Of a DNA stretch of 64,000 nt, positions 4,661 to 54,891 are shown one piece after another. This DNA comes from Porodaedalea pini (taxonomy: Eukaryota > Basidiomycota > Agaricomycetes > Hymenochaetales > Hymenochaetaceae). The notes beneath the pieces were generated by a model. It was not told the DNA's origin. It did not search any database and was given only the letters and a program-made list of their open reading frames with translations. Within the stretch, counting starts at the first letter, position 1, and each line of letters opens with the position of its first letter. The stretch is from NCBI GenBank assembly GCA_002794775.1, contig NBAY01000019.1:547077-611076 (forward strand), written 5' to 3'. The translations under genes were made by a program, and so were the position numbers.

Positions 4661-4668
4661 AGGGGGAA
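4661..4668 (+). other. Polypurine tract of the copia element
   Basis: AGGGGGAA directly abuts the TG of the 3' LTR, the normal position for the plus-strand priming site. Confidence 0.8.
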
Positions 4669-8429: not shown

Positions 8430-10178
8430 TCACGAGAAGTTAAGGCTACGAAGTTTGGTCAGGACATTCTGCACGAATATCACACTTTCATCGCGTGCCT
8501 GGTATTCTGACTCTGTGACCTTCAGGACAGACTCGCTCAGAGTTGGCTTGGCTGGTTCCCCAAACATCAAGCAGGACACAACGACGTCTTTGAATTTCGT
8601 ACCCATAATGACCGGGATCTCCCTCTCCGCCAGTTCGATCAAGTCCCACTGCACCAACCATCCTCTATTCCGGTACTCTGGCTGACCCATCTCTGTAAAA
8701 ATCTTTTTATACTTCTCTATTGAGAAATCAAACCAAGAAAAATCAGCATCGTAACATTCCCTGTCGACCGACCAAGAAAACAGCGATCTCCAAAGTGCAA
8801 CCTCGATGAGTACGACTCCAAGGCTGTAGATGTCATCGCGCATCTCATATCGAACGTGCTCCGCGGATGTGGTGTGTACAGGGTGTGTGTAGACCGTTCT
8901 CATGTGCGCCGAAAATTTGAAGGGATTAATGACAGTGTCGGCGTCATCGGAACGCGCGCGATCGAAGTTGGCAAGATAAGGAGAGCCGAGCTTGTTTGGG
9001 AACAAGTCGTCGTCTTTAGCTCTGAGCGGTTCGAAGACAAGTATGGAATCTGGTCGTATGTCTTTGTGCACAACCTTTAGGGAATGGACGATAAGAACGG
9101 AAGTCGCGAGCTGGATAGAAAACTGGAGACGTGCATCCAGTGAATGGCGAGGCGCACCATCAAGGAGGAGCATGCGCAAGGTGCGCGGACGACGCGATCC
9201 CGGTGGTGGTCTGAAAACCAGATCGTGCTCTGTGCTTAAGAATTTGGACGACGTCTCTGCCCACCCGCAGCAGGGCAGGATCCCAACACTAGCGGAAGAC
9301 GCGATAGTCGCTGTCCCTGAACGTTCTTCAGCGAAGAGCCTGGCAATTTGATCCGTCTCGTTGACCGCCTGATCGCCTTTCTCCTCTGCATAAAGGTAGT
9401 TCACGTCGCGCCTATCAATAATGCATCCCATATACCGGCCCTCCTCTATCATGAAGAAGCCGGTTGGATGAGTGAAGTCGAGATCTTTGTATGAACTGAT
9501 CTCTGAAGCTTCGATACGCTGTACGGGTAAGTTGCGGTCCGTACGCTCTTTGGCCCGAGCAATGAACAGGACATCATCAGCAATGTCCTTAATGAGGTTC
9601 GGGTCCATGTGCAAATACGGGTCCCTGACATATCTCAGCTCCTGGGAAGACAGAAGAATGTCCCGCAAATTTCCAGTCCATCTCTCGAGCGTCTCCATAG
9701 CATCGTTGATTTGGCGACAGCCCATCGCAAGATATGCAATCTCTGTGGTTAGTTTTCCGATTGCAGAGCGGTTGAAACGCGTCAGAGTAACGCCATTTTT
9801 GCTTCGCATAAGTTTCTCTGCAATTGCGGCGGCAAGACGAGCCATGAACAGCCTCCCACTCGTTGCTGTATCAATTCGCAACCGCACCGTCCAATTCTCC
9901 ACAACACACGCCATCGTCAACATAGCATCGGATGCGTGGAACAAAGCTTCTTCAAGCAGCTGTTGCCGCTGAGATTCTGTGGTTGCTGGACCAGCTTGAG
10001 CTTTGACATCGATAAAACCGACGTAATAGGCAAGCTTTCGTGTCCCGAAGACAGCTTGATTGACCGCCAATGTGTGATTGGCCTGCAGGTTACGGTACTC
10101 CTTAACTGTTTTGCAAGTTTTGACGATGCCCTCGACGATCGCAGGAAAACCCAAGACTAGAGACACGAAGTCCGTCAT
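8430..10178 (-). CDS. Family A, copy 1: HeLo-like helical domain fused to pseudokinase
   Basis: This is a single-exon protein of about 582 residues. The Met at 10178 aligns with the starts of the two paralogues; an upstream in-frame Met at 10193 is possible. Residues 1-200 are predicted helical and open with DFVSLVLGFPAIVEGIVK, the hydrophobic helix style of fungal HeLo domains. Residues 290-580 are kinase-like: ASVGILPCCGW, RTLRMLLLDG, VHKDIRPDS at the HRD site, NFD where DFG belongs, then MRDDIYSLGVVLIEVALW. Loss of the DFG aspartate suggests a pseudokinase. HeLo is homologous to the MLKL four-helix bundle, so the layout resembles MLKL. It ends in LTKLRSL like its paralogues. Neighbours are the palindrome at 10305-11153 and gene B1. 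A role in cell death is inference. Confidence 0.85.
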   Translation of the reverse strand: MTDFVSLVLGFPAIVEGIVKTCKTVKEYRNLQANHTLAVNQAVFGTRKLAYYVGFIDVKAQAGPATTESQRQQLLEEALFHASDAMLTMACVVENWTVRLRIDTATSGRLFMARLAAAIAEKLMRSKNGVTLTRFNRSAIGKLTTEIAYLAMGCRQINDAMETLERWTGNLRDILLSSQELRYVRDPYLHMDPNLIKDIADDVLFIARAKERTDRNLPVQRIEASEISSYKDLDFTHPTGFFMIEEGRYMGCIIDRRDVNYLYAEEKGDQAVNETDQIARLFAEERSGTATIASSASVGILPCCGWAETSSKFLSTEHDLVFRPPPGSRRPRTLRMLLLDGAPRHSLDARLQFSIQLATSVLIVHSLKVVHKDIRPDSILVFEPLRAKDDDLFPNKLGSPYLANFDRARSDDADTVINPFKFSAHMRTVYTHPVHTTSAEHVRYEMRDDIYSLGVVLIEVALWRSLFSWSVDRECYDADFSWFDFSIEKYKKIFTEMGQPEYRNRGWLVQWDLIELAEREIPVIMGTKFKDVVVSCLMFGEPAKPTLSESVLKVTESEYQARDESVIFVQNVLTKLRSLNFS

Positions 10179-10304
10179 GTTGAAGTATGCCAACTGGCCT
10201 TTTGTCGGCGAAAAAGATTCTTCAGGCTATAAAGACAGATCGGATGAACTTGAAGTTTTGTCGATCAAGCTTGGAGCCGAACTAGCAATTGCCATTCTGG
10301 CGAA

Positions 10305-11153: not shown

Positions 11154-11431
11154 GGCTCAAAGATCGTCAGATTCCACTCTATCTAATAAGTCTTCCAGAA
11201 TTCTTTTGTTTACTGTAAATTCTTACGCCCTGTTTGATACATATTATACCAGAATTAAAGAAAACAGTTTAATTATGCAGGCAGAGCACGAGCGGATTGA
11301 AATGCTAGGTTCCATAGTTTCCGAATATTGCACACAAATAAGAATACGAATAGTAAATGCATGAGAGAGGACAGACAAATCTAGCTAGTCCAACGAGATG
11401 ACCCTGATCAGAGAGTCAGGCATAGAATTAG

Positions 11432-12747
11432 TCAAGGGTTCAAAATATGGGCACCAGACGCACCGAGTAAAGATTTTAAGATGTGAAAACATTCCCGACG
11501 AACTGACCCAACATCCTGAACGAAGGATGCCAGCTTTCCTTTCCCAATGTCTCGGAGCCGCCACCTTTGCGCATATCCCGGAACACCAGAAACTAGTCCA
11601 TTAAACTGTGCTAACGCATCACTGATGGAAGGACGCTCCGTTGCTTCACGCTGCGTCATACTTTCAACGAGAGGAGTTAAGAACTTTGTATTCGTAAACT
11701 TCTGTCTGATAAATCAGCGGCAGGCCAACAAATAGAGAATAGTTCGTACCTCTGTAAAGTTTCGCTTGAAGACATTTCCGAGTATGAAAATATCAACTGC
11801 AAACGGATCGTACATGTCGAAACCCGAGAGTTCAGGGACTTCTTGGTCTAGACCATCGCCCCCCCTTACCAACCGCGATTCTCCTTCCTTAAATTGACTC
11901 GACAACCCGAAGTCCGTGAAGTAATATCTAACCGAATGAACATCTCTTCGACGAATGGGATAGGCCGGCATGCCAGTCGCATCGAGATTCCAGACACTTG
12001 CATGGAAACCTTTGGGGAACATTCCCGCTGCGTCGAACATAATATTGCTATCTGAGCAATCTCTTCAAGGCTTGAAACGTCAGTTTAATATCAAGGCCAC
12101 GGTAGATTGTAGTCTCTCACCTGTGCGCAACACCCAACCTATGCATAAATGCCAATCCCTGTCCGTGGTTCCTTATAGTGATGTTTGTGGACAGATAGTC
12201 AAAAGACAAACCTCCAAAGCTTGTTTCATGAAGTCTAGTACTTCCTCAACGCTGAAAAAAGGGGGGTCGTTGAAAGGTCGAAGAAGTGGCATAACGAGAA
12301 ATTCGAGAGACGGCAGTGATTCGTCCCTAATGATCTGCAGGACAGGGATGCAATGGTTCGTCGGGTCTTCTACCTGAGCCCCAGATGAAAGAAAAGAGGC
12401 GATATTCGTCTCTGTTGAGTTCCGTTTGACAGCTTTGATGACGACTTGCGTCCCATCGGACAAGCGCTTGGCATCGATGAGCATGGGCAACTGTTCTTGA
12501 GCTTAGCAATTGTGACTTATCGGGTTATGCAGAGACGCACGGGGTTGTACAGCGAGTCTTCGCAGAGTAGGACCTTCTTGTCGGTATTCAACCAAGAAGG
12601 AATCCACTCAGGTCGAAAACGTGGGCGTAGGAGATATCCGTGACGCTCGAGCATCTTCTGCCGATCTCTCCATACCATCTCACCGGGCGTAAGGTCGAAC
12701 TTGATTTTGACATTTTCTTTCCGCCATGCAGGACTTTCATCAGACAT
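11432..12747 (-). CDS. Family B, copy 1: basidiomycete kinase-like protein
   Basis: This is a kinase-fold protein coded by about five exons. Start chosen at 12747 (MSDES) by alignment with copies 2 and 3; an upstream in-frame Met at 12813 exists. The N-terminal signature is VWRDRQKMLERHGYLLRPRF followed by RPEWIPSW. No glycine loop is visible. VVIKAV supplies a likely ATP-binding Lys, and FLVMPLL precedes a hinge-like region. An exon near 12060-12150 gives GVAHR, spliced to DCSDSNIM (HRD catalytic loop). TDFGLSSQF is the DFG motif, followed by GGDGLDQEVPEL and YDPFAVDIFILGN. The C-lobe ends near the stop at 11432. It is divergent from C1 (219 bp between ATGs) and upstream of A1 in the same direction. 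Activity is plausible; substrate unknown. Confidence 0.82.
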
Positions 12748-12966
12748 CGAGTAAAGAGTAGGATGCGGAAAATTTGATGGGGATAGATGCAGAACAAGAC
12801 GCAGGGCCAACATGAGATGTGATGTACAAGTTGATGGGATTTTGTTACCTAATGCAGTTTTATTGTTTCCAAGATTTGCAATATTTTCGTTGTTCTCTTT
12901 AGCACGATGTGGTTATTCTGGTCCCACGCGCACCTTGGAAACGGCGTCGGCGACTTTTGTCCTACG
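12748..12966. promoter_or_regulatory. Divergent B1/C1 promoter region
   Basis: There are 219 bp between the inferred start codons of B1 (minus) and C1 (plus). The same head-to-head arrangement recurs in the other two modules, so shared control of the two kinases is likely. No clear TATA box is seen here. Confidence 0.5.
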
Positions 12967-15933
12967 ATGTCCACGTTCGAACCTATAAGTCCCAGTGCAG
13001 GTGATAGCGTTGCTCTTACTTTTGACTTCCGAAGCCCGCAACCCCGGGTGTCTCTTCTGACTCCACACAAGTGTCTGAAATCTTCAAAGCTCTGGATACT
13101 AAATGCCGGCCTCAGAGCGTACTCAGGTATGTATTATCATCTGTAACCATTTTTGACATTTCCTTCCAGACAGACCAATATTGTTTTCTAAACATTTGTA
13201 GAATAAAAAAATGGTCAGAGGGCTCCAAAAACTTGATCTCACTCGTAGAGAGATAGAGTCGTCAGTCATGTTCGGCGGTGAAGATCCGACGGACAAGATA
13301 TGTGCCGATCTCAGACTCCAATACAATGAGTTAAGCCTTTTCTTTTCTCTTCCGGTCTCACGTTATTAACCTGTCGTGTGCCATTGTTATATAGGTCAAG
13401 GGCAGAAACAGAGCTCCTATGCAATTCACATAGAGGCAGCTTCTTGCGTAGAGCCCTGAGCCGACTGCCGTGCAAATCAGATGCGGATATGACTGAGAGA
13501 GTTATCCTATTAGGCAGGTTACAACGAATTGAAATGGGCTATAAGGTGAGGGAGTTACTGTATCTACTATTTTCCAATAACTCACTAGTCCCTCGAAGAA
13601 CTCATCAAAGGTCCGATTATCTTTCGAAGTAATCACTACGCTTGCTTTCATGAAGTCGCCACCAGTTCCGACCGACACATACCGCCATGTTGCATCCACT
13701 AAATGGGCGCCGACCTTCAAATGTGAGTTGCTCTTGATGAATCATGTGATGACTCGAGATTCTAATTCACTACTTTGTAGTACTTCAGTTATCGGATCCA
13801 TCCGTCTGGAAAGTGTTAGGATATGTTGACAGCGATTTTCAGGCCTGGTGGAGGTCACGACAGAGTTTTGCTGAACTAAAAGACACAGGTCGATTCATTA
13901 ATTCCTTTCCAGACCATTGTTGAGCCTCTAATATCGCAATTCTAGTTGAACAAGAATGGAAGGATATGAAGGCTCTATGTGGAGGCATAGTATTTCTACT
14001 TGAGTATGCGGTCTCCTCTGTGAGTTCCCATGTCACCTCTTTAATCAAATGTCAATTAATGCGACATACAGGAGCTATCTGGAACATCACTAGATACCTA
14101 CTTCAATGATCTTTCTTACAAATTTCGTCTGCTAGGGTACAACCTTTTTCAGCTCATTGAGTATCCCGAGCACTTTGCTTCGGTCTCAGAGCTACTTGGA
14201 TATTCTGCCCCGTAAGTATTTCAGGCGTGACAGCTGGTGCTGTACCATGACTCACGTGTACTGGCATAGTATTGTCCATGTCGCACTTAAATGCCTGGAA
14301 AAATTACGCGCTTCATTTGACGAAGAGCGACGATCAGGCATAAGTAACTTACATCTGGCAGCGAAGTTTTATAAGCGACAGGTCGTCTGCCTGATTCGCC
14401 TTATCGATGCACTACTGGGGAAGAGCGAGGTTCGTCAATGCCTTCTCTCGATAAGACTGTGGTGCTGAAGGATTTTCAGGATCTTCTCCTTAAGGCAGAC
14501 TCGTCACTCAAGGACTCGACCACCGAGTCGGGCTCCCTAAAGACAATAACTGGTCTCTCAATAACCAGCCTGCATGGCACCGAAGATATCGAATCGCAAC
14601 GAGCAGCACTGTCTCTAAGTTCGTTAACAGCGTACAATCTCGAAGGTGTGATTGCAATTATGATCCCGTCCCCGCTTTCATCTCTGAGTGGTATGTGTAG
14701 CTCTTAAAGACCTTGGATTACAGGAAGTTCAGTTATCTGCTCATAAGGGGCGCCAGATCGGCTTTGGTTCTTTCTCAATTGTCTTTGAGAGGGTTACACC
14801 TGACGGAACACGCCGGGTAAGTGATCGCCTACCTGGCTGGGTTGGCTGACTTAAACTTCACTGCTTAGTTTGCCGTCAAGGAACCTACCGGAAAGGATGG
14901 ACTTGATCATGATGCAATATGGAATGTAAGTCTTCAGAATTACTCCTCCGGAAAACAGTATTTACGCAATTTCTGCATGGTACAGAGAGTCGCAAGAGAA
15001 GCACAGATATGGAGACTCTTGAAGCACGAGAATATACATCCACTGCATGGGGTTTGCTTACTTCCCGATGACCTTCCTGCGCTTGTGATGGATCCCTGTC
15101 ACTGGAATCTCAAAGAGTTTATCCAGATGTGCCCTGCGACTACCGAGAAGAAAAAGTTGGAGCTAGTAAGTTCCGGTTTGTGCAACAATATGCTAGTGTT
15201 GACACACTTGCAGCTTCGTGGGGTCGCTTGCGGACTTGCCCACAGTGCGTGTCATTGATCGGTGTCCCGTTGTTGGAGGAAGCTAACCAAGTCCTCTAGT
15301 ACATTCGCAGAAAATTGCTCACGGAGATTTACGTGCCGTAAGTCCCAGAATAGCGTAGACATTCGAATGCTGACACTAGGAACTAATACAGAGCAATGTC
15401 CTCGTGAAAGAAAATGATGCGAATTCCGCTCATAAAGCCGTACTGATCGACTTTGGTATCGCATACTTTGTGGATGGCGGATCTGACCCTGTGCTTTCAA
15501 GCCCTATGTTTGAAACAACCCTTGGGCAAGTGGGAAATCCCAATTGGCTTTCTCCTGAGCTCCTGAGAAAGGCAGGCTCCCGAGATAGGGGATCTGCTGC
15601 AAAACAGGACCGTGTGTGCATCTCGATTCCAGGTGACATTTACTCCTTCGGGTGTGTTTTTTTAGAAGTAAGTTCATATTTGGAGCGAAATGAGCGTATT
15701 GATTGGATAAACTGTAGGTTATCTTTGAGCGGGATCCTCATCAGTCTTTCCATACTGAAGAGCAGAAGAAGGCGAAAAAACTTGAGGGACACTTGCCGGC
15801 GACGCTAGAAGAAACTAATGCAACTTACTTCCCCTTTCTTTGTTCTTTATGGAATCCTGATCCAAATTGCCGGCCCTCCGCAGTATCTGTCATACGCCAA
15901 TTAGACGATTTCTTAGAAGAATTTACACCCTAG
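12967..15933 (+). CDS. Family C, copy 1: long helical N-terminus plus HGD-type kinase
   Basis: This is a multi-exon gene of roughly a dozen short exons. Start chosen at 12967 because that frame leads into a plausible donor at about 13130. The N-terminal part is probably helical and carries a conserved aromatic motif: DSDFQAWWRSRQSF, then WKDMKALCGGIVFLLEY. A linker follows, then a kinase: GFGSFSIVFERV (glycine loop), FAVKEP (Lys), REAQIWRLLKHENIHPLHG, IAHGDLRASNVLV, LIDFGIAYF, GDIYSFGCVFLE, ending at the TAG 15931-15933. HGD replaces HRD, making it a non-RD kinase, but Lys, catalytic Asp and DFG are kept, so activity is plausible. Divergent from B1. Exact borders in the first kilobase are uncertain. 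Confidence 0.75.
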
Positions 15934-16352: not shown

Positions 16353-17710
16353 TCATTCTAATAGACGCTCGATGGCTAGAAGGTGTTTAATGAGTTGACT
16401 CGCGCCATGCCTCTTCACAGGATCCGCAAACCAGCAGACAAGCATCACATTCCAGCAGTTATCATCAACGAGGCAATTCTCGGGCTTCGGAGGATGTTTT
16501 CGCTCTAACAACTCCTTTTCGATGGCATACCCATCCCATGGGTTAGCGCTACGGAGCACCTTTCAGACATAGGCTAAGCTCGATCACCGTCTCAAAACTT
16601 GCAAACAATTACCTCAAGAAATGTACAACCGAAGGACCAGATGTCCCCCGCAGTGGTAGGATGCGTGTAATCGATCATTGGCTTTTTCGTCCAGCTTGAT
16701 ACCTTAACATATTCCGGCGGGGTCCACGAGAAAGTGACGGGCGCTGACGTTCCGCCAGTAACCTGAATATCAGTCTCCACCTCCGCCAGTTTTGTAGAGC
16801 CAAAATCTGCAATACGAGCATTGTATCGCGTACCGTCAAGTATCTCTATGACAATGTTGCTCTATAAAATGGGGAAATCGTAAATAAGACGTTCTGTATG
16901 AAGGAAGGAGGGCTTACGGCCTTTATATCACGATGAATGGCGGGAGGGTTAAACGAATGCACTGTAGGTACATTAATGTGGCTGAAAGACGAAGCAGGAC
17001 ATGCTACGGCGTACTGTGCTTCAATCCGGATGCGACATCCCGCATCTGCCGTATTGAGTGAAACTTTAAGGCATATATTTCGGATCGATATCGCAGACAC
17101 CTACTAGCTTAACCTTCCCTTTCAGACTGATCTTGTACTGAGATACAAACATACGCAGATTTCTCCCTTCGTAATAAGGCATAATCAAGGCAGGAAAAGC
17201 TTCCATTTGTAAGGGACGGACAAATCCCAGGAGAGGAGCGATGTTCGGATGGTCTCCGAGAGCCCTCCAAATTCGGCATTCACGCTTAAAGTACTGGGAT
17301 CGAAGAGGATTAGTGAGAAAGTCCAAGTTTATAATTGTGTACTTAACAGCTTACTTCGATGAGAAGTTTGAGTCGTTTTTTCGGATCGCTCGATTGTGCA
17401 GAATAGTCCGTGTTGACGATCTTGATAGCCACGTACCACTAGCATTTACAGCATAAGACTGGCAGTGCTCAAAAGAGACCCTGCGAAGGACCACCTACCG
17501 TGACATTTCCTTCAGCAGTGTGCGTTCCCTTGAGAATTCCGGTTCGTCTTCCGCCTTTAATCGCACGAAGTCGAACGATACTCCTTTCGCTGAACTCCGG
17601 AACTCGCCACTCATTTAGTACTGCAGACTATCATTATCTCTCAGTTATGCGCGTCTAAGGCTTGAGCACTCACATTGAGGAATATAAGTTCTAATGTTGA
17701 CCCTGTCCAT
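16353..17710 (-). CDS. Family D, copy 1: compact protein kinase
   Basis: This is a multi-exon kinase. Motifs in order: EWRVPEFSE (family D signature), VAIKIVNTDY with the ATP-binding Lys, FKRECRIWRALGDHPNIAPLLG, AIHRDIKA spliced to SNIVIE, ADFGSTKL, FSWTPPEYV, GDIWSFGCTFLEV, then a CW motif typical of the last lobe. Canonical HRD and DFG are kept, so it is probably active. No standard glycine loop is evident. The ATG at 17710 is the nearest Met in frame. Alignment with D2 suggests coding sequence continues upstream (HCRHLYNL preceding that Met), perhaps to a first exon near 18147, so the start is uncertain. It converges with C1. Confidence 0.78.
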
Positions 17711-34433: not shown

Positions 34434-34813
34434 CGTGTAAACGGATAAAAAAAGGATTCGTCGGCGCCTCTGAGGGGATCCGCTATCTGTTATGTGCATG
34501 ACAGAAACGTCGAAGTAATGCCAGGAGCTTCAGGATTTCTAGCTGTTCAATGCTTCGGGAAGGAAGGGGTTTTGGAAGTTAGATCGAGCTACCATGCTGA
34601 ACTATATGGATACGATAGATCGCCCTTGACAACGAGCAAGTGAGAAGTGTGTGAGCCAGGCGAGTTGCAGACAATTGTTTTTGGCACTCCTTGTTCGAGT
34701 TTGACAGTCGTCGTTGTCGTGACGAATCAGGTAGTTTATGTAATTGATTAACGGCCACGTTCAATCAGTCGCCATGCGAAACGCTGCTCGTCTTCTGCGT
34801 TCATGTCTGTCTA
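34434..34813. promoter_or_regulatory. Divergent C2/B2 promoter region
   Basis: About 380 bp separates the candidate C2 start from the B2 ATG. Head-to-head arrangement as in modules 1 and 3. No gene or clear TATA box identified. Confidence 0.45.
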
Positions 34814-36094: not shown

Positions 36095-37180
36095 AATATC
36101 GCAGTCCGTAAGTAGCAACTTACAAATTCTTCTCAATAGCTTTCACGTCGAAAAGGGGGCGATAGAGAGCGTGTGCTAGGCTCTACTGGGCTCAGTGGGA
36201 CTCTTTCCTCTTCAGCTCATTCTTCGTGCTAAGTCAAAGTTATTAGGCATACTATTTTGTTATTTTCTACATACTCGGAAAACGGAATGTTTGGTGCGCG
36301 GGATACGGATCAATGGTGCCGGCCTCACTGCAATTATACAGAATACTTTTGAGCTAGAGTCTGCTCATACTCAGAGCTTGCCGAAGAGACGAATGCCATA
36401 CTTGAGTGAAACAACCCTCAGAACTTGACACATGACACGATACCGAATAAGAGACACAGTATACGAAACGGGAAGTGTCAGGCATGTACCAATATGTCTA
36501 CCGCACTGGCTACAGAAAGCAAATTGACTATTCTGCAATTGTGTGGGCAGTCTTGTTATGCAGCAAGCGGACGTGCCAGTCCCAATAGTGTGGCACGATG
36601 TTTGAAAATATTAATGAACGGCCTTAGGAAACCTGATAAGGTTCTCGAGGGCCAATACGCATGCAACTTGCGAACCAATGGTTAATAAAACCGACGATTT
36701 CAACAACACTTTTCGATCTTTGTTGGAAACGAGGCGACCTTGTTGAGCATTAAAAATAGAACATTGTGATACCCCTAGCTCCGTAGCAATCCCCGAAGAC
36801 AAGCTGTCAAAAGAACAAGAGCTCTGCGGCTATCCGGGCTGATCGGCGATCGAATAAAGTTCAAAGCTTAGTACGTAAGATCCTCTGTGGGATGTTATGT
36901 TCGTTTATGAGTCCACCCGCCTGCTTTGCGGTCTCGTCTATCGATCCAGCCAACTCATCGCAATTCTGCAGAGAATCAGGTTAGTTAACGCACTTATGTT
37001 CTACCTACTTCTCACTCATAGTCTATGCATAGTTATCATTTTGATCCACCCCCCCTTCAAGATTTGTTTTGTCGAACTTCTATCTGTAAAGTTTTCTGAA
37101 TCATAGTGAGCTCGCTACTGTCGCTACTAGATTCGCTGCTGACCATGTGCTTTTTCAAAGCTACCTCAAACAGTCTCGCC
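36095..37180. other. Intergenic region between B2 and A2
   Basis: About 1.1 kb with no recognisable gene. It is presumably the A2 promoter plus B2 3' flank. No palindrome comparable to that of module 1 was seen. Confidence 0.45.
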
Positions 37181-39019: not shown

Positions 39020-39098
39020 TACTTACTATGAATGCAATACCATCTCGCTGCTAAATGCTGAGTCTGTCGGGAAAACGGGTCGATTTGAAGGTAACAGG

Positions 39099-40569
39099 TT
39101 AATCTAAAAGCATATTCATATAAAGTGCAATGCCAGACGCATCAATACGTGCTTCAGGTTCGTCATTCCAGCAGTGTTCCATAATAGACCAAACGGCATC
39201 ATCAATGACTAACTCTGACGGTCTTGGCGGATGTCTCCGTGCCTTGAGTCGAGATAGAGTTCTGTCATCCTGTCCCCAAGGGTCGCTTCCTTTCAGCGTC
39301 TGCAAGTAAGATTGCCGATCTGTGAGTACAAATATACGAAGCTAAGAAAGAGACATACAATTCACCTCAAGCAGAGTACAACCGAACGACCATATATCAC
39401 CGTAGGGAGTTGGGTTGGTATAGCTGGGCTGCCCATTTATGATAAACTCTGGCGGGGTCCATTGTATTGAGGTCATCATTGTTGTGTATGCCATGTCTAT
39501 TCCAGTTTGGTCTAGGAACTTTGCGGAGCCAAAATCCGAGATGCAGGCGATGAATGTCTTGCCACTCTCTTTCACAAGTATATTAGACTGAAGAAGCCAA
39601 AACTGTCAGATGCTATGAAAAAGCAGATCAGTTGATCCACGTACGCCTTTGATGTCTCTATGAACCACTTGCGGAGTAAGCGAATGCACTAAATGATGGA
39701 AAGTCAAGTCATGTTACAAAATCAACTTTGAGCGCGTACGGTACTCTAGTCCACGTGCGACATCTCGTGTCTGAACATAGGAGCAATCAGCTTAGAAAAG
39801 CATTACTGCACGAGACGAAATATCATCGTACTAGGCTCAGGCGAATCGCAACGGTTATACTCCTATCATTCTCAACAAATCGACGCAGATCCCTTCGTGG
39901 ATAATAGGGCGAAACTGTAGCTGGCAGAATACTTCCATTGAAGCTCTCCATGAATGCAGAAATTTCCGCAATGTTCGGGTGGCTGCCGATCTTGCGCCAA
40001 ATGCCAGCCTCGCGCTTAAAATACTGAATAACACTTTTTATATCAGAATACCGTGTGTCATAGAAGATAAAGGTTTTACCAGAAGCAACTTTTTCTTCCT
40101 CTCTTCATCATTGAGAGCTTGCTTGGCAGTATCCGAGTTGAAGGTCTTTACTACAACGGTCCTCTTAAAGAAAGAAGTTAGTAAGAGCTATTGCTACGAG
40201 TTAAAGAGCACCTACCGGACTGTGGTCAAGCTCGGATTGGGATGCCATCGATGCTAGGATGATGTGTGAACGCCATCCATGTGTAAGAGTATCGATATGC
40301 GTAAGCTGAGACTCTTTAAATTCGGGAACGGCCCACTCCTCGCGGATACCTGAAGAAGAGAAGACCTGAGTAGGGTCAAAACACTGCACCTTTTCACGGA
40401 CCTGAAAGGATTTTTTGTTTCACTTCTTCTACGGATGCCGATGTATCTGATGACATCTCAAGGAGCCAACCGGGAGTAAAAATATTGATGTTACGAGGTC
40501 TGTCTCAACCAGCCGATTATATAGCGTATGAAGCGGTGGCAAGGAGTGGGAAGCACTACCAAATGTCAT
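39099..40569 (-). CDS. Family D, copy 2: compact protein kinase
   Basis: This is a multi-exon gene. Start at 40569 (MTFGSASHS) inferred because HTLYNRLVETDLVTSIF aligns with D1 upstream sequence. EEWAVPEFKES is the family signature. A VVVKTF-type segment supplies the ATP-binding Lys near 40140-40160. EAGIWRKIGSHPNIAEI lies near 39965-40010. VVHRDIKG is spliced to SNILVKES, then SDFGSAKF, IQWTPPEFI, GDIWSFGCTLLEV and HPPRPSEL in the C-lobe. HRD and DFG are intact, so activity is likely. It stands downstream of A2 on the opposite strand, unlike D1 and D3, which flank C. Confidence 0.78.
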
Positions 40570-46057: not shown

Positions 46058-47414
46058 TCATTTCTCCTCCATAACGAATCGATCCATGCATGCCACTACT
46101 TTCTCTGTAGGATACCGTGACGTTGGGCGTAGCTTCCAACATCCTTGAAGGAACTTCCAGTGCTCATCCTTGAGCTCTACGTCGCGAGGTCGTGGAGGGT
46201 GGTGCCCTTTCTCAAGTTCGCGAAACACATCAAGATTCGTGGGCCATGGATCACTTCCAGTCAGGACCTATTAAATCGAGCTCAGTAATGAGTCAAATTC
46301 AAATACAGTAGGAATGCTTACTTCTAGAAAGACGCAGCCGAATGACCATATATCGCCGGACGGCTTCGGGTTCGTATAGCTTTCCAGAAATGTCTTCGAT
46401 TTCACATACTCTGGGGGCTCCCAGGCAAAGCTGCACGATTTTGAAGAGCTGTACACAACATTCACAGCCGGGTCCATCAACTTGGCAGAGCCAAAATCGT
46501 TTATGCAAGCGATAATCCTCGTTGGGATAACTTTCAGAAGAACATTTGACTAGAGACCCTTAATAAGAAAAGCGTCATTTTCTCCATTTTAACACAAAAT
46601 ACGAACCGCGGTCAAGTCTCTATGCACGATAGGGGGCTGAAGGCTGTGTACTTGGATAGATATTAGTGATGTTGCTACTTCAGAAGAGGGACACTCTTAC
46701 AATGCTCCAAACCGCACGCGATGTCTCGAAGCTACGAAAATGTTAGAACTGTTTCCAAAACAGACACTGTTATATCAGGTACTCACAAACTGTAGCTTTG
46801 TCTTGTCGTTTGCATCGGCACCCTCGTTTGTAATGTAGTATCTCAGGTCACCCATCGGAAAGAAGTGGAATACGAGTACCGGAAAGGTATCGTCTCCAAA
46901 GGAAGGCATGAAGCCCATAATCCCCGCTATGTTTGGATGGCTGCTGGCACGCATCCAAATATCAGCCTCTCTTGTGAAGTACTTTCCGGAGAAATGGTTC
47001 GTCAGACATGGGTCGTCTAAATTCGATGGTATCCACATACCGCAAGTAATTTATCTTTGTACTTTTGCGTCTTCATTTCCTCCAGTCTTCCAACTGCGAA
47101 AGCTTTGTTGAGAGATTTGACGACAACGCTCTTAGAAAAGTAAGGTGCGTAAGCTCTCGTGGAAGCTGAAGCGTCTATCATGGTACACTCACGACTTTTC
47201 CAGCCTCTCGCGTTGCAAGTATACCCTCGGTTAGAGTTGATCGACCGGAATTATGAAAAACACGTTTTGAAGCTGTAAACTGAACGTCTCTGTATTCCGG
47301 AACCTTTGCGATGCGGAACTCTTTCGAATTCAAGTGGATCAGTTGTCGCGATCATGATCAATTAAGAGAGTGCCACTGACTTTCAATAATTGATGTATTC
47401 ATAGCCACGGACAT
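46058..47414 (-). CDS. Family D, copy 3: compact protein kinase
   Basis: This is a multi-exon gene; the stop (TGA) is at 46058-46060. A Met at 47414 gives a short first exon (MSVAMNTSIIE). FRIAKVPEYRDVQF aligns with the family D signature. Then come STLTEGILATREAG, VVVKSLNKAF (Lys), FTREADIWMRASSHPNIAGI, IVHRDLTA spliced to SNVLLKV, NDFGSAKL, FAWEPPEYV, GDIWSFGCVFLEV and HHPPRPRDVEL. HRD and DFG are intact. It is in tandem with C3, on the same strand and downstream of it. The start is moderately certain. Confidence 0.78.
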
Positions 47415-47951: not shown

Positions 47952-50852
47952 CTAAGAGACATGCGAGAGTCGGCTTGCTACGACAAGCTCTGCTAGAGTA
48001 CTACGTACGACAGACGCATTAGGACGCCTATCTGGCCTGGCGTTCCACAGCCTGCGTAGCAAAAGCCAATGCTTTGTGTTAGTAACCTTGTCCGATGCAA
48101 CGGGAAATACACCGTCTTCCTTGAGCTTCCTCAGTGGCTCCTGCACGTTATTGTAGAGGAGAGAGCCATATACAATCTATGACAAATGCATTGGGATAAA
48201 GCAATGTGAAGTAAAGAAAAACTCACTTCAGCGAAAACACAACCGAAAGCATAAATGTCTGCCTCCTTTGAAACCATTATCGTACTGCTTGGTCGGTTGG
48301 TGTAGAACTCAGGTGCGCGATACGCTTCCGGGGCCCTTTGGCCGTCTGTTCTCATAGAAATGCGGTTGAAAGTGCTCTTCGTCGCATCAGCAAGGCCGAA
48401 GTCGGTTAAAACTGCGATATCACGATCAGGGACTTGCGACTTTTTGATGAGAATATTTTCCTAGAGTATGGATTAGATAACAAAGGTCAACATCGTCGCA
48501 AGTATCACTGACCGGTCTGAGGTCCCCATGTGCGCATTTATTGTCGTGGACTGTAAGGTTTTGAACTGTGTGTACGTGACGTAGGATTAACAACAACTTA
48601 CGGTACTCAAGCCCAGAGGCTACATCGCAAATCTGAAAGTGAAGAGTCGAGTCATAAATAAAGTCAATACTCCATGCGGAGCTATACTCACAAGATTGAG
48701 CCTATCTTCGATCCCTAATGTCCTTGCGCTGCAATAATCGATAAGATTGTCCTCACAAACGTCCATGACCAGACCTGGGTACACGGAATCCTCAAATGTA
48801 CAGAACCCGACTAGCTTGTTGATATTCTTATGGTCCGCCTTGTTCCAGAACTCAGCTTCACGTATTATATGCTACAGACGAAAATAAGTGAGCTTCAAAT
48901 TCTGGTGCAGTAAACCAAGGAAAGCTCACATTCCAATGTCGCTTTTCGTCAAAATTCGTGTTATTGAGCTTGAAAATCTTCACAGCATACTATATATGCA
49001 ATGTCATGAGTCACGGGTAATTGTTGCTAACGTAAAAACTGACCTGTCCACTGCGATCATATGAGTTATACCTTTTGACAAAAGCAGAAGATCCCGATCC
49101 AAGTACTCCGCAATGCTCCCGTTCGAGCTCGATTTTGTCCAGTTGAAATCGTTTCAGCTCTGTTAGGATTTGTTCATCATTCAAGCTATCTAACAACTAG
49201 AATATTCACCTTGGACTGAGAGAACAGATGCGTCTCGCTCTCTTCGCCTCGTGATGATTTCGCACGCCTTCATGGAGATATCATCGTCTACTCTTTTCAG
49301 AGATTCATCAAGTTCCAAAGAGTCCCGAATAAGACCTGATGCCATTAACGCGAGTCTCCCTTGTTCAGAAATCGAGCGAACAGTATCTGCATCTAAGACT
49401 GCAACAGAGCTCAATAAAGAAGCCGAGTGAAGAGCTCTCTAGACACTTGCCTTCAGTCAAATCACTGTCTTGCGCAAGTACATTCGAGTGCTGACCTGCC
49501 ATGAGTTTTCCGCCCAAGTTCTGTGAAATAGGAGAGTAAGAGATAAATCTATCAATGCAAAGGTGATGATGAGAAAGAGATGATTACATCAACAAAGTTC
49601 TTCAAGTCAATGACAATATGACCAATTACGTCGAGTACTTCAGATCGACGAGCTTTCAGAGCTCTGGTACATTCGGAAAGCATGAAAAGTACTCTGTGTT
49701 GGTTAAGCGGGTAAAAAATCATGAAATGATGCGGAAAAACGATTGGACGTACGGAATAAAAAACTCCATTGAGGGTCGTATTTTCTCGACTTTGTCTGGG
49801 TATCGGTCAACGAGCCTTATGATGGCTATTGCGATCCTCTGTCCTTCTGCAGTACAATCACTTATGATATCGAAGTCCGGTTCTGCCAGATTCTCCTGAG
49901 ATGATGAGTGTTGTAAGAAACATAACACTCAAAACGAGCCGTAGAGATGCACTCACGTCATCAGCACAGTAATCCAACATGAAGACCATTTTTCTGGCCA
50001 TCGCCCTCATATCATTCCAGATAACAGTTTCTGCGAGATGAAGTAGCTTTCAGAATGCTTCTACAGAAAATACTTAACAGGAACAAGACCTGGACTACGC
50101 TTGTCTAGATGATGGTCACGCCACCAGTCGAAGAGAGCATGATCTACAAGACCGAATTCTGCCAAGAGGGAAGCGATGGCTTTAGAAATCGCATCTTCCC
50201 CAGTAGTATGAATCGAATCAGTCGGCAGCTTTCTCGGAGCGTTGCATCCTTGACTGAGGTTGATTATCCAGCTTCCTGTGAAATAATGGGCAGTCGACAG
50301 CTCATCAATTGAGGCGAGACTCGGATGAAAAGCGAGCGGAGACAGAATTTTGTGCTCTATGCGTTGATGAGTCGTTTTCTGAGCAGTTCAAACCTCAGTA
50401 AAAGTATAGTCCCAGATGTTATGAAACTTACTACAAGGAGGGACATAACCTCTGCAATGTCCTCGGCAAGCTGCTTCACCTGGAGCTTTATGCCACTCCT
50501 CCCTGCTAGACGTCTAAGCCTTGCAGTTGCGCTCGACTTGCACGAAGCCAAGTAACAATTATAATCTAATTCAAGTCTGGTCATATGTGTAAACGCCTCA
50601 TAAGTAGCTGCTCGGCAGGGGCAGACTGTGGGGCTTACTTTCGGAGACGGCGGACTAGCTGCTTGGTCTTTGGATCATCCGAATCAACCAGGAGTTTGTC
50701 GATTGCGATGCCTTCTGCTTTTTTGCGAAGGCTTATCAGCTGTTCATATTGTTCGAATGCAAGATCCTCATTACTCTAAGAGAAGACATGATTATCAGTG
50801 AAAGCACCATCGTATGGCTTAACACACGTACAATGCCGAGTTTCATTGGCAT
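47952..50852 (-). CDS. Family C, copy 3: helical N-terminus plus HGD-type kinase
   Basis: This is a multi-exon gene. The Met at 50852 gives a short first exon (MPMKLGI) and a GT donor. N-terminal exons have EQYEQLISLRKKAEGIAIDK, LELDYNCYLASCKSS, the aromatic motif HALFDWWRDHHLDKR, and WNDMRAMARKMVFMLDY, all aligning with copies 1 and 2. The kinase has VLGSGSSAFVKRYNS (glycine loop), YAVKIF, REAEFWNKADHKNINKLVGF, CAHGDLRPENILIKK, LTDFGLADA, APEFYTNRPS and ADIYAFGCVFAE, and stops at 47952. HGD replaces HRD; Lys, Asp and DFG are kept. It is divergent from B3, 247 bp between start codons. Confidence 0.78.
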
Positions 50853-51099
50853 TGACCTTGAGGCACTATGCTAGGGCGAAGGTGGAGAGGAGCGTGCTTT
50901 CTGCGGATATAGGAAACAAAGGGAAGGCATTGAGTTTTATATAAACACTGCATCAGATAGCAGAAGAAGCTAACGACGACAGAACAAGGAGGTGCTTATT
51001 GTCCCTTGGACAGCGTGAGAGTGTATACATCACGTGGAAAAAGTGACATTTGCTTGAAGTTTGGCGACGTGCAGCAACTTCATACTGCCTCGCCTCTCC
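50853..51099. promoter_or_regulatory. Divergent C3/B3 promoter with palindromic TATA box
   Basis: The perfectly symmetric TTTATATAAA (50936-50945) lies 83 bp from the C3 ATG and about 155 bp from the B3 ATG. Being its own reverse complement, it could serve as a TATA box in both directions. The region is only 247 bp long. Confidence 0.5.
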
Positions 51100-52452
51100 A
51101 TGACTGACGACCTGGTCACCAAAGAAAATTCCATGCAAGCCACAGATGAAGATCCAGATGATCTCCTCGAGTCCGAAAAGTGGTGGAGAGATCATTACAA
51201 CCTGCTGGAATCACATGGCTATCGTCTACGCCCTCGGTATCGTCCAGGTTGGACGCCACCATGGAAAGTCACGGGGAAAAGCCGAATGCTCTATGAGGAC
51301 CGCATCTATAGCAAAGTATGGTGGCTTCTTTCTTTGTATATATATGCTATACATAACATCTTAGGTGGATTATGTTATGGACGCGACTCGGATTTCAGAT
51401 GATACAGTCGTCTCCATCAAGCGCATCAGCATGAGATCTCAAGAACTGTCCATTGCGCTATTCCTTTCCAACAACGAAGACTCGGATGAAGCCATGAATC
51501 ACTGCGTCCCAGTTCTAGACCATTTCAACGATGCGATTCTCCCCCAGTTTTCATTCCTCGTTATGCCTCTATTGCGTTGGTTTGATAACCCACCGTTTTT
51601 TTCTGTTGATGAGGTTCTTGAGTTTCTTCAACAGACGTTAGAGGTCAGAAGTTCGTCTTTCACTGGCAATCTTTATGCTTACATACTCTTAAAAGGGTCT
51701 CTCGTACATGCATAGTCGAGGCGTGGCTCATAGGTGAGTCTATGATCACTTTTTATTTACTTCACCTTTACATCTAATAAATCTACAGGGACTGTGCTGC
51801 GCTCAATATCATGCTAGATGCCTCCTCACTATATCCACAAGGCTTTCACCCCGTTGCTAAGACGCTGGACCCATCGGGAACAAAGAGCGCGCCCGTTCGG
51901 CGCCGTCGCGATGTGCAGGGTGTTAAATACTACTTCATTGACTTCGGCATTTCTTCTCGCTTTGAGAAGGACGTGAAGGCAGAGGACAGATTGGTGACTG
52001 GAATCGATGGCCAAGATCGTGATGTCCCAGAACTCTCTGCTCACCTCTCATATGATCCATTTGCAGTCGACGTTTTCATACTTGGAAACGTGTATCGAAA
52101 AGTATTTCTCGATGTTCGTGAGCCTATATATCCACCACTTGTCTCCAATGGCTGACCTTCCCATTATCACTAACAGGTCTACATCAACCTCGCATTTCTT
52201 TCAAGCCTTGTAGAGTCCATGACAGCTCCTATACCCGAGGATCGGCCATCTGCTGATAAAGCGCTTGCTCAATTTCGCGACCTTATTGCTGACCAACATG
52301 GTGTTCGACTTCGGTGGAGACTGAAGAAAAAAGACTCAGGAATAGTGTTGCGTGTTCTGCAGGATATCGGATCTATTGCGCGAGAGGGAGCTTACGTGTC
52401 GACGAAGATTATTAGTAAGATACTTCGTCGTCAATCGAGTATTCACACCTGA
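51100..52452 (+). CDS. Family B, copy 3: basidiomycete kinase-like protein
   Basis: The ATG is at 51100 (MTDDLVTKE). Exon 1 has WWRDHYNLLESHGYRLRPRY and RPGWTPPW. The next exon has MDATRISDDTVVSIKRIS with the likely ATP-binding Lys, then FLVMPLLRWFDNPPFFSVDE. A short exon gives GLSYMHSRGVAHR joined to DCAALNIMLDA (HRD loop). YYFIDFGISSRF is the DFG motif, followed by TGIDGQDRDVPEL and YDPFAVDVFILGN. The last exon covers FLSSLVESM to the stop at 52450-52452. All parts keep frame and align with B1 and B2. It is upstream of A3 on the same strand (711 bp) and divergent from C3. Confidence 0.84.
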
Positions 52453-53163
52453 CTCATTTTGTACTACTTTGTCTTCCAGAGCTCCCTCTAGGATTGCTGC
52501 GGAAGTAAACATGCATACTCTTTTAGGTACTCAGGATGGATGTTTTTGCTTTGTTTTCTTACACTTATGGTATCGATGGTCCTTTTTTTGCGTGGAAGCA
52601 TGTAATCGTTTCTACGTGCCCAGTAAGAAGAAATGTATGCGCCAGTGGCGATAAGGCCCAGCTTTCTCGTACGCCTTCTCGTTGTCAAAAGATTCTGGAC
52701 TGCAATCGCTACATATCTGTTGACGTGTTGACACCTTATTTCACGTCGCGTCAGGTACTGAGTTTCATGACTCTGAGGCCAAAGCTTGACTGATCTCGTT
52801 CGCTGTGCACGTCGTCTCCCCTATTCGGCAAGCTGTGGGACCGTGCGTTGTTCCTAAAATTTGAAATAGGCAATCGGGCGGCGACTCGAAGACGACACGA
52901 ATGTCTTGTTTGTGCTTTTTTTTTGTACTCGTTTCTGTGCAACAAAGTTCCGCCTTTGCACGTGTCATCCCGAAATAGCAATGTGGGAACATATAGAAGT
53001 TTGTAGGACCAAATGTTGCCGATCAAAAATTAATTTTATCAAGACGCCGTGGAAAAGCACGCATCCCGTTCTACGCAAACTCGAGTCTCGCCGTTCGTGA
53101 GTCGATCTCCAATTCACAAAAAAAATCACACTGACGAGTCGGACCTGACCAATTCAGGTTCCA
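52453..53163. other. Intergenic region between B3 and A3
   Basis: 711 bp, no gene recognised; presumed A3 promoter. Confidence 0.45.
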
Positions 53164-54891
53164 ATGTCGGATCTTGCTTCGCTGGTCTTGGGCATCCCTT
53201 CTTACGTGGAAGGTTTTGTCAAGGTTGGTAGAGCTGTGATAAAATACAAGTCGCTGGAACGAGATCACATCGAAACTGTTGAGGATGCCATCTTCTGTGC
53301 CGGCACACTCAAGTACTATGCCGGGTTCGTGAACGCGAAAGATCCGGGTACTCTCAACCATCCATCTCGTCCACTCTTGGAGGAGGCTCTCGGCCATGCA
53401 TATGATGCCCTTTATACCGCCGAAGGGATTCTACAGAGTTGGACGTTAAGGCTTAGTCTTAAGCCTAAGGCTCACGGACGCATGGTCTTAGCCAAGCTGG
53501 CGAACTCGGTTGCCGAGAGAATCATCCGCAGTAAAACCAGCGGGCTCGAGGATATACCAAGTCGAAGTCGCATGGGCCACTTAAAGATGGTTTCAGAAGC
53601 ATCGTACCTCGCCTTTGGATGCGTGGAAATCAAGGAGGCTATGACGAGGCTCAACAAATGGACAACGCGTCTTGGCCAACTCCTCCTCACGTCTCCGAAC
53701 CTGCAACTGCGGAGAGACAGCTCGGGCACAGATAATGTGCATGACGACATGTCGGATGATGTCGCATTCGTTGCATGTGCGCGCGAGCGCGCTACCATGA
53801 AGCGAGATGTCTTAATTGTGGACATATCACAGTTGGATTCGAAATTCGACATCGATCCTGATCACAAATCCGGAATGTATCGCTTATCAGGCGGCGACTA
53901 TGCTGGCTACATCGTCGATGTCCGCGATCTCGCTTTACGACGTGGAGCATCACTCGAGGCAGAGGCGCGCGATTCCGAGTACATTTGCAGACTATTCGCC
54001 GAAACCCAATCTGATAGCGAGCATGGGGCTCGAGCGAGCGTTGGAATACTACCATGCCTTGGTTACGCGATTGGAGATGAAGGAAAGAAACATTTCCTCT
54101 TATTTCGACTCCCGACTGGTACAGGAACACCCAGAACACTCCGCAGCCTATTACTTACCGGGCCTGCCCAGCACCCACTTAACTCACGTCTCGAGTTTTG
54201 CGTCAAGCTCGCGACATCTGTACTCATCGTCCAGTCGCTTGGCCTTGTCCACAAGAACATTCGCCCGGAATCCATCCTCGTTACAGAGCTACTCCGCTCG
54301 GATTCGGCATCCGCAACACTTGGAACACCCTACCTTGTTTCATTTGGACAGGCTCGCATATCCGCCGGCCCTTCTGACTTGACGTCTTATCTCGGAGCTG
54401 CGCTCGCTCGAACTCTGTACGTCCATCCGCGCCACTTGTCTTCGAGAAAAAGGAGGAAGTTTCAGATGCGCGATGACGTCTACAGCCTCGGGATCTGCTT
54501 CCTAGAAATTGCAATTTGGAAGTCCTTGTTCAAGTGGGATGCTGAGAAAGGTGGCTTCGTATGCGATTTCGACCTCCTGCAGATCTCGGACGATCATTAC
54601 GATGAGGTCTTGCAGATGAGAGGGCGATCAGTTCAGCAAGACAAAAGTTGGCTTCGACGCTACGACATTGTAGAGTTTGCGAAGAAACACGTGCCTGCTG
54701 CGATGGGCAACACCTTTAAAGACATCGTCGTTGACTGTCTACTTTTTGGAGAAGTCGATACTCTATCGTATGACGCGACCATGGAGAAAACTCACGAGGT
54801 AGATACGCACGACGACAAAGCCGATCTACAGAGCGTTATGTTCGTGCAAAATATACTGACAAAGCTTCGTAGTCTTGTATTTACTCTCTGA
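53164..54891 (+). CDS. Family A, copy 3: HeLo-like helical domain fused to pseudokinase
   Basis: This is a single-exon protein of 575 residues. Start at 53164 (MSDLASLVLGIPSYVEGFVK). The helical N-terminus is residues 1-200. ASVGILPCLGY is near residue 291, RTLRSLLLTG near 324. Kinase remnants are VHKNIRPES near residue 362 (Asn instead of the catalytic Asp), SFGQA at the DFG position (Asp lost), MRDDVYSLGICFLEIAIW, and MGNTFKDIVVDCLLFG, ending ILTKLRSLVF. Both catalytic aspartates are gone, so this copy is the clearest pseudokinase of the three. Same strand and order as in module 2. An MLKL-like executor role is inferred from layout only. Confidence 0.88.
   Translation: MSDLASLVLGIPSYVEGFVKVGRAVIKYKSLERDHIETVEDAIFCAGTLKYYAGFVNAKDPGTLNHPSRPLLEEALGHAYDALYTAEGILQSWTLRLSLKPKAHGRMVLAKLANSVAERIIRSKTSGLEDIPSRSRMGHLKMVSEASYLAFGCVEIKEAMTRLNKWTTRLGQLLLTSPNLQLRRDSSGTDNVHDDMSDDVAFVACARERATMKRDVLIVDISQLDSKFDIDPDHKSGMYRLSGGDYAGYIVDVRDLALRRGASLEAEARDSEYICRLFAETQSDSEHGARASVGILPCLGYAIGDEGKKHFLLFRLPTGTGTPRTLRSLLLTGPAQHPLNSRLEFCVKLATSVLIVQSLGLVHKNIRPESILVTELLRSDSASATLGTPYLVSFGQARISAGPSDLTSYLGAALARTLYVHPRHLSSRKRRKFQMRDDVYSLGICFLEIAIWKSLFKWDAEKGGFVCDFDLLQISDDHYDEVLQMRGRSVQQDKSWLRRYDIVEFAKKHVPAAMGNTFKDIVVDCLLFGEVDTLSYDATMEKTHEVDTHDDKADLQSVMFVQNILTKLRSLVFTL

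What the first reader, a model, noticed from the sequence alone, without database searches (positions are those of the whole stretch)
8430..54891. A four-family kinase module present three times with conserved order
Families A (HeLo-like plus pseudokinase), B, C and D each occur once at 8.4-17.7, 31.5-40.6 and 46.1-54.9 kb. C and B are always head to head and A always follows B in the same direction; module 1 is the mirror image. D is adjacent but mobile. The copies are diverged at protein level, with no long nucleotide identity noticed, so order was kept over a long time. Fusing a helical, potentially membrane-active domain to a pseudokinase beside active-looking kinases suggests a phosphorylation-triggered regulated cell death or allorecognition system. 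Function is inference.
Basis: partly seen in the sequence, partly recalled or inferred. Interest (0 to 1): 0.9.

Follow-up and report, generated by a model that had tools for sequence, protein, structure and literature searches.

The report
Hypervariable kinase gene modules in fungi
A wood-decay fungus carries a repeated block of four kinase-type genes in which, in half of the blocks compared, only the central head-to-head kinase pair differs strongly between the two copies of the genome while its neighbours stay nearly identical, the pattern expected of a self/non-self recognition system.

Summary
Twelve spliced genes of four families form three D-C-B-A modules in the window; genome-wide I find seven modules with all four families, one decayed and one partial. 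In all seven, C and B are head to head and A follows B. Gene trees mostly group whole modules, and A, B and C relatives co-cluster in Sanghuangporus. New and decisive: the assembly holds a second haplotype of the cluster (contig C92). Mean identity outside the genes is 97.8%, but in modules 2, 5 and 6 it falls to about 55-85% over the C/B pair (in module 2 only C's N-terminal half plus B), with silent divergence 0.4-1.7, while neighbouring A and D proteins stay 95-100% identical (dS 0.005-0.15). Modules 1 and 4 show no such island; module 3 only a dip within background range. Divergent alleles are constrained (dN/dS 0.06-0.20). A is a pseudokinase in all 14 copies; most B, C and D copies keep catalytic motifs. 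A's N-terminus is predicted helical but matches no HeLo model. Best reading: a multi-locus allorecognition system, C/B setting specificity, A an MLKL-like executioner. Recognition and cell death are inferred from one individual's haplotypes.

The parts
8430..10178 (-). A1: N-terminal helical domain + pseudokinase, 582 aa, single exon
   Evidence: identity to the other haplotype 99.9%
11432..12747 (-). B1: kinase with HRD and DFG, 5 exons, 368 aa
   Evidence: 99.9% between haplotypes
12967..15933 (+). C1: long N-terminal domain of unknown fold + kinase (HGD, DFG), 16 exons, 714 aa; first exons uncertain
   Evidence: 99.5% between haplotypes
16353..17710 (-). D1: small kinase (HRD, DFG), 8 exons, 320 aa
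   Evidence: 99.6% between haplotypes
31551..34323 (-). C2: variable N-terminal domain + kinase, 14 exons
   Evidence: first 350 codons 59-81% aa identity between haplotypes by 70-codon windows, the rest 99-100%
34814..36170 (+). B2: kinase; last exon uncertain
   Evidence: 78% DNA identity between haplotypes, dS 1.04
32850..36150 (.). Hyperdivergent island between haplotypes: 5' half of C2, shared C2/B2 promoter and B2; mean identity 71.7% over 3046 aligned bases (32950-36050) against 97.8% for 27394 aligned bases outside module genes and island
37181..39019 (+). A2: N-terminal helical domain + pseudokinase, 612 aa, single exon
   Evidence: 99.6% between haplotypes
39099..40456 (-). D2: small kinase, 8 exons, downstream of A2 instead of beside C
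   Evidence: 99.7% between haplotypes
46058..47414 (-). D3: small kinase, 8 exons
   Evidence: 98.6% between haplotypes
47952..50852 (-). C3: variable N-terminal domain + kinase, 16 exons
   Evidence: 96.2% between haplotypes
51100..52452 (+). B3: kinase, 5 exons, 377 aa
   Evidence: 97.0% between haplotypes
50100..51300 (.). Dip over 5' C3 / promoter / 5' B3, 93-95% identity in 400-base windows; a non-module stretch near 20.3-21.3 kb dips as low, so this is within background range
53164..54891 (+). A3: N-terminal helical domain + pseudokinase (HKN in place of HRD), 575 aa, single exon
   Evidence: 98.7% between haplotypes

Best explanation
The window holds half of a six-module array that most likely works as a multi-locus allorecognition (somatic incompatibility) system of a Hymenochaetaceae fungus. 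SHOWN: each module joins a head-to-head pair of kinases (C with a long variable N-terminal domain, and B) to a second small kinase (D) and a pseudokinase with an N-terminal part predicted to be helical (A); in three of six modules the two haplotypes carry very different C/B pairs, while A and D are nearly constant. INFERRED: the co-inherited C and B alleles set a self specificity, as writer and reader of a phosphorylation mark or as matched activator and inhibitor. When mycelia with different C/B alleles fuse, the mismatch is relayed, perhaps through D, to the pseudokinase domain of A, whose helical N-terminus is released and damages the membrane, killing the fusion cell, much as RIPK3 activates MLKL. 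Having several modules raises the chance that two strangers differ somewhere. Likelihood: the module and its C/B-specific hyperdivergence about 0.95; allorecognition as the cause about 0.5; MLKL-like killing by A about 0.45.
Against: Only one individual's two haplotypes were compared; M1 and M4 are nearly identical between them, and the dip in M3 is within background range. No phenotype, expression or interaction data. The N-terminus of A matches no HeLo-type Pfam model and no PDB family, and it is modelled with low confidence (block means of pLDDT 36-85 over residues 1-210). The MLKL match ranks 11th, below ordinary kinases. A of M5 has an in-frame TAA in both haplotypes, and D of M4 an unexplained in-frame stop in my model in both. 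Trans-species allele sharing could not be shown cleanly. That C92 is the other nucleus's copy rests on collinearity and assembly size, not on read depth.
Confidence: 0.5

Rival explanations
1. The modules are polymorphic immune sensors against other organisms or viruses. C/B diversity is kept by parasites, and A kills infected cells; allorecognition would be a by-product or absent.
For: The same polymorphism and effector anatomy would be expected. Fungal non-self genes are discussed as part of immunity (passages of PMC10197012 and PMC12881547).
Against: Both head-to-head partners diverge together with their shared promoter in the same haplotype, as expected for a matched recognition pair rather than for a single receptor; in the B1, C2 and C3 proteins scanned, Pfam shows only kinase domains above its cut-offs apart from an overlapping kinase-like (Kdo) match.
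Confidence: 0.22
2. Contig C92 is not the other haplotype but a recent segmental duplication, and the C/B islands were overwritten by gene conversion from unsampled modules.
For: No read depth was available; modules do duplicate. The one control locus tried, a kinase on C7, occurs once, so the assembly is not doubled throughout.
Against: C92 and C19 are collinear at about 98% also outside the window (C92:1501-4500 = C19:535105-538117). The assembly is 53 Mb, against 33-34 Mb for monokaryons of Sanghuangporus (starts of the abstracts of PMC8537844 and PMC10803629 in a search listing). Allelic C pairs are sister in trees, B pairs in M2 and M6; M5 B is unresolved and sister at SH-aLRT 92.
Confidence: 0.13
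3. The modules take part in mating or nuclear pairing in the dikaryon, a third mating-type-like system, rather than in somatic rejection.
For: The head-to-head pair with divergent 5' ends resembles homeodomain mating-type pairs in layout (the comparison is recalled).
Against: No homeodomain or pheromone receptor match on the module contigs. M1 and M4 are nearly identical in the two haplotypes, which a strict mating factor at each module would not allow. Linkage to a pseudokinase with a helical part suggests killing.
Confidence: 0.1
4. Ordinary signalling kinases in a fast-evolving tandem family; the divergence reflects relaxed selection or chance old haplotypes.
For: B-type kinases are abundant in Agaricomycetes (529 proteins matched, 120 listed), and the decayed module M8 shows turnover.
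Against: dN/dS of 0.06-0.20 shows constraint. The same two genes are affected in three modules while the neighbouring A and D genes are not.
Confidence: 0.05

Closest known systems
MLKL / necroptosis executioners and plant MLKL-like proteins
   Same: Pseudokinase behind a part predicted to be helical; profile match to MLKL 4btf over positions 97-413; active-looking kinases encoded beside it.
   Different: N-terminal 4-helix bundle or HeLo not demonstrated; encoded in a polymorphic four-gene module; activation untested.
Fungal HELL/HeLo proteins with kinase or pseudokinase domains (mentioned in PMC12881547; passages and one section read)
   Same: Overall architecture of A; mentioned there for fungi in general terms.
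   Different: No sequence match of A to HeLo-type models; no kinase-pair partner or hyperdivergent locus is described in the passages that I saw.
Fungal kinase-like proteins with DUF7580 (PF24476)
   Same: Distant relatives of the kinase part of A (P0013-P0040; those named are ascomycetes; four carry PF24476 in the table, and P0013 matches it).
   Different: They match 25-50% of the query; A itself shows no PF24476 match.
Reader/writer model of basidiomycete somatic incompatibility (PMC8229728)
   Same: Tightly linked, co-diverged gene pair of potential modifying enzymes; both alleles present in the one individual examined; several loci.
   Different: The model is theoretical and names no genes in the parts that I saw; here the genes are kinases joined to a pseudokinase.
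Basidiomycete homeodomain mating-type pairs
   Same: Head-to-head gene pair with deep allelic divergence ending sharply at conserved neighbours (comparison recalled).
   Different: Kinases, not homeodomain proteins; on other contigs than the PF05920 and STE3 matches.

Membership tests
MLKL-like executioner (gene A) | Kinase fold lacking catalytic residues | tested here: met
MLKL-like executioner (gene A) | N-terminal four-helix bundle homologous to MLKL 4HB / HeLo | tested here: inconclusive
   Helices 4-53, 67-100, 108-123, 139-176 and linking helix 193-214 predicted with modest confidence; the N-terminal profile's only PDB match up to E 10 is a ribosomal protein at E 5.1; the full profile aligns to MLKL from position 97; fold search covered only residues 210-582
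MLKL-like executioner (gene A) | Phosphorylated by a partner kinase, permeabilises membranes | not testable with these tools
   needs biochemistry
Fungal HeLo/HELL family | Match to a HeLo-type Pfam model | tested here: not met
   0 of 11 N-terminal sequences list a HeLo-type model at E up to 10, with HMMER's filters on
Fungal allorecognition (het) locus | Deep allelic polymorphism restricted to specificity genes | tested here: met
   C/B in 3 of 6 modules compared between two haplotypes, A and D in none; one individual only
Fungal allorecognition (het) locus | Trans-species polymorphism | tested here: inconclusive
   12 of 14 listed S. baumii B genes are closer to another species than to listed genes of the other S. 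baumii strain (tree), but 90% clustering hides near-identical copies, orthology in arrays is uncertain and strain labels may be wrong
Fungal allorecognition (het) locus | Genotype difference causes rejection or cell death on fusion | not testable with these tools
   needs pairings
Reader/writer incompatibility locus (PMC8229728) | Linked, co-inherited pair able to modify and check proteins | tested here: inconclusive
   C and B are linked, co-diverged and mostly catalytic by motif; which is writer or reader is unknown
Mating-type locus | Homeodomain or STE3 genes at the locus | tested here: not met
   PF05920 matches only on C2 and C10, PF02076 only on C1
FunK1 fungal kinases (PF17667; name recalled) | Score above the Pfam cut-off 24.1 | tested here: not met
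   C3 12.2 and P0041 12.0 bits; not listed for B1, C2 or D1; other copies not scanned whole

The most novel reading that the evidence does not exclude
This is the molecular basis of somatic incompatibility in a major family of mushroom-forming fungi: an array of independent kinase-pair loci, each a self-contained writer/reader of phosphorylation marks with many ancient alleles, wired to an MLKL-like pseudokinase, that is, a phosphorylation-coded allorecognition system unlike the NLR, HET-domain or gasdermin systems of ascomycetes.
Probability: 0.38. Interest if true: 0.96.

Novelty: categorically new. Interest (0 to 1): 0.88.

Why it matters
In basidiomycetes individuals reject each other after hyphal fusion, and the process is described as poorly understood, with all current models taken from ascomycetes (start of the abstract of PMC8229728). 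If C/B pairs are the determinants, this gives genes to name, clear allele classes and a simple test (do C/B genotypes predict rejection?), links fungal allorecognition to kinase signalling and to an MLKL-like architecture, and offers a new case of old allelic polymorphism comparable with mating types. Even if the function proves to be immunity against parasites, it would be a repeated, hypervariable kinase system with a pseudokinase partner that I did not meet in the listings of my ten literature searches (open-access full texts only, no preprints, most listings capped).

Tried and rejected
HeLo assignment: N-terminal profile against the PDB up to E 10 (only a ribosomal protein at E 5.1) and 11 N-terminal sequences against Pfam up to E 10 gave no HeLo-type match; the label is not used as a finding. 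Structure of C: the only database relative taken as a true C (P0041) folded alone gave pLDDT 34, discarded. C and A N-termini show no relation by profile comparison (hhalign probability 0.4%). Fold searches with the A model returned kinase structures (50 rows shown each, model range 210-582); MLKL is not among the rows shown, which is not evidence against it. Idea that an essential XPB gene flanks the cluster: rejected, the helicase-like segment is a repeated element. Idea of linkage to mating type: rejected. Trans-species test: inconclusive. Gene models: the first automatic runs were unusable and ended in an error. In the models behind the short third exon of B was mis-spliced in M3h and M6 (in M6 the DNA reads as a GC-donor intron that restores HRD), so dN of M3 B and M6 B is overstated; the DNA identities do not depend on it. 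Two apparent stops in M6h C look to me like unspliced introns. Motif rows short of a full set: B M3h, M6, M8, M9; C M7, M9; D M7, M8. In the trees I left out M8 A (no real match) and M9 C (113 aa), and used 7 of the 40 A homologues and 1 of the 105 C hits (the others look like general kinases); the program flagged long-branch joins, among them P0009 with M3/M5 and M9 A with M6 A. In one search I used 39 of the 120 listed B relatives, chosen by name from Hymenochaetales, and left out M8 B and M9 B. The folding alignment used 21 of the 40 homologues.
Full report
What was checked. The window is G000:C19:547077-611076 of a 53.3-Mb assembly in 201 contigs and ends at the contig end. I built spliced models for the twelve genes. 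A genes are single-exon; B has 5 exons (B2 perhaps six), C 14-16, D 8. Within-family identities are 27-52% and the copies share no long near-identical DNA, so they are old.

Domain content. B, C and D are protein kinases by Pfam (B1 37 bits, C2 133, C3 122, D1 105, these four of the twelve window proteins plus P0041; C1, B2, B3, D2 and D3 were not scanned whole). At the motifs, a full set of Lys, HRD/HGD and DFG stands in 11 of 15 B, 13 of 15 C and 13 of 15 D rows; the rest are decayed, partial, mis-spliced or misaligned copies. A has Arg at what I read as the beta-3 Lys, HKD/HKN/HKG/HKR for HRD, and no DFG Asp in all 14 copies: a pseudokinase throughout. The first 215 residues of A are predicted as helices followed by a linking helix (mean pLDDT 76.6 for the whole protein, block means 36-85 over residues 1-210). 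A profile of A and relatives matches MLKL (4btf, E 3.5e-6, profile 97-413), ranked 11th behind ordinary kinases of the PDB, but the N-terminal profile alone matches nothing useful. So 'HeLo-like' is a plausible guess, not a result.

The module in the genome. Searches with one protein of each family and spliced alignment found D, C, B and A together in modules M1-M3 (window and contig C92), M4 and M5 (contigs C65 and C92), M6 (C170 and C92) and M7 (C29), that is seven modules in thirteen copies, not all with clean reading frames (M5 A, M4 D); M8 (C25) keeps D, C and B with many stops and no A within the 10 kb fetched, and M9 (C21) is partial. C-B is head to head and A follows B in all seven; D sits on C's side in six (about 15 kb off in the C65 copy of M5) and beyond A in M2, and its strand varies. 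Of 17 A places, 14 have B within 5 kb; the three exceptions are on C25. All six of M1-M6 lie on C92, so they form one cluster.

Descent. Trees of A, B, C and D recover {M3,M5,M8} in B, C and D (M3 with M5 in A, where M8 has no copy) and {M2,M4} in A, B and C; D of M2, the displaced one, does not join M4. Modules were therefore mostly duplicated as blocks. Fomitiporia mediterranea has A genes related to M1 (FOMMEDRAFT_160243, 73% identity) and, on a branch flagged as long, to M3/M5 (160236), with B genes 112858, 127977 and 127984 on a contig of the same length, 2,247,744 bp. In Sanghuangporus baumii, C (ACEPAG_3780), A (3782) and eight B genes (3755-3792) share one contig; S. sanghuang, S. weigelae and S. 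vaninii show similar B arrays (tags 88-146, 4396-4442, 4143-4180), the first two with an A inside the array. Ten of 40 A hits cover at least 85% of the query; the five of them with a named organism are Fomitiporia or Sanghuangporus (only the 7998 best candidates were scored). B relatives are common in Agaricomycetes (529 matched, 120 listed).

The key result: haplotypes. Contig C92 (141 kb; 130 kb fetched) is collinear with the window and beyond it at about 98% and lacks the copia insertion, the palindrome and the helicase element that the window has. The assembly is larger than the 33-34 Mb of monokaryotic Sanghuangporus (starts of abstracts), while the one control locus tried is present once, so I read C92 as a second haplotype retained where divergence is high; this is inference. 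Between haplotypes, 27,394 aligned bases outside module genes and outside the island are 97.8% identical; the lowest 1-kb window outside the M2 island is 92.9%. Inside 32,950-36,050 identity is 71.7%, with sharp edges: 100% at 32,800-32,849, 90% from 32,850, 78% from 32,950; and 98-100% again from 36,150. The island covers the N-terminal half of C2, the shared promoter and B2. In M5 (C65 against C92) C and B are 55-79% identical and A 97-100% apart from the window at its start (91%); in M6 (C170 against C92) C and B are mostly 57-84%, D 99% and A 92-98%; M4 is 97.7-100% throughout. M3 dips to 93-95% at the same place, but non-module sequence near 20.3 kb dips as low, so I do not count it; M1 genes are 99.5-99.9%. 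Silent divergence makes the point best: C/B dS M2 0.42/1.04, M5 1.14/1.64, M6 1.66/0.95; A/D in the same modules 0.009/0.005, 0.028/0.054, 0.150/0.006. Taken at face value the C/B alleles are about ten to a few hundred times older than their neighbours. dN/dS of 0.06-0.20 says that the alleles are constrained. The most variable part is the C N-terminus (41-59% aa identity in the first 70 codons of the three pairs; the M6 C model lacks its start), then the first 140 codons of B (71-82%).

How it most likely works. A tightly linked, co-diverged pair with nearly invariant neighbours is what theory expects of a recognition pair under balancing selection. The authors of PMC8229728 argue that basidiomycete somatic incompatibility cannot rest on direct interaction of allele products, because dikaryons are heterozygous, and propose linked reader and writer genes acting through post-translational modification (passages, one section in full). 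A pair of kinases fits 'writer', and the pseudokinase A with a predicted helical N-terminus fits an executioner like MLKL, which RIPK3 switches on by phosphorylation (PMC12881547, passages and one section). In this reading C and B alleles are matched; foreign C/B after fusion produces or misses phosphorylation; D or C/B phosphorylates A; A attacks the membrane. Shown: genes, motifs, order, descent, polymorphism. Inferred: every functional step.

What speaks against it. One individual; three of six modules show no clear allelic difference (as expected if alleles are shared, but also if those modules are monomorphic); M5 A carries the same in-frame TAA in both haplotypes; A's N-terminus is unassigned; different C/B alleles are tolerated together in this individual, so a threshold or reader/writer logic is needed. 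Immune sensing of parasites would leave the same footprint and is the main rival.

Novelty. Pseudokinases joined to HELL domains are already mentioned for fungi. I met no description of a kinase-pair recognition locus or of this module in the listings of ten searches of open-access papers. In Trichaptum, also Hymenochaetales, a scan for balancing selection reported mating genes and a few others, including two kinase genes (passages of PMC8970355); I could not tell whether they are related. I call the system categorically new on the strength of its composition and polymorphism, with function unproven.

Noticed in passing
window 55828-64000; C65:1-17865: A helicase-like segment (ERCC3/XPB C-terminal domain, 176 aa) is part of a repeated element: 65 matches in the genome, many as inverted pairs about 9.65 or 8.6 kb apart. 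One copy, split between the end of C19 and the start of C65, appears to sit between modules 3 and 4 in this haplotype; C92 has no match.
   Followed up: partly
window 902-4847: Copia-type LTR retrotransposon (LTRs 902-1080 and 4669-4847, 99% identical; gag and reverse transcriptase domains) present in this haplotype and absent from C92.
   Followed up: partly
window 10305-11153: A perfect 408-bp inverted repeat with a 33-bp spacer lies between A1 and B1 and is absent from the other haplotype; a recent palindromic insertion or an assembly artefact.
   Followed up: partly
C65 61278-62999 and C92 109659-111381: The A gene of module 5 has an in-frame TAA after 195 residues in both haplotypes, which would leave only the N-terminal part if it is translated that way.
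   Followed up: no
L030 (C25:68001-78000): Module 8 is decayed: 3 stops in B, 6 in C and 3 in D, and no A within the fetched 10 kb.
   Followed up: no
C65 55328-59205 and 37130-52516: In the C65 haplotype module 5 has about 3.6 kb of extra sequence between the head-to-head starts of C and B and about 15 kb between D and C; in C92 these genes are adjacent.
   Followed up: no
window 55881-56110 and 57951-58354: Two arrays of short tandem repeats built on TTGGGAGTGCCCAA-like palindromic units.
   Followed up: no
proteins QCA50_004816 to QCA50_004844 (Cerrena zonata): B-type kinases also have near-consecutive locus tags (five listed) in a fungus outside Hymenochaetaceae, so B arrays may be wider than the A-B-C-D module.
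   Followed up: no
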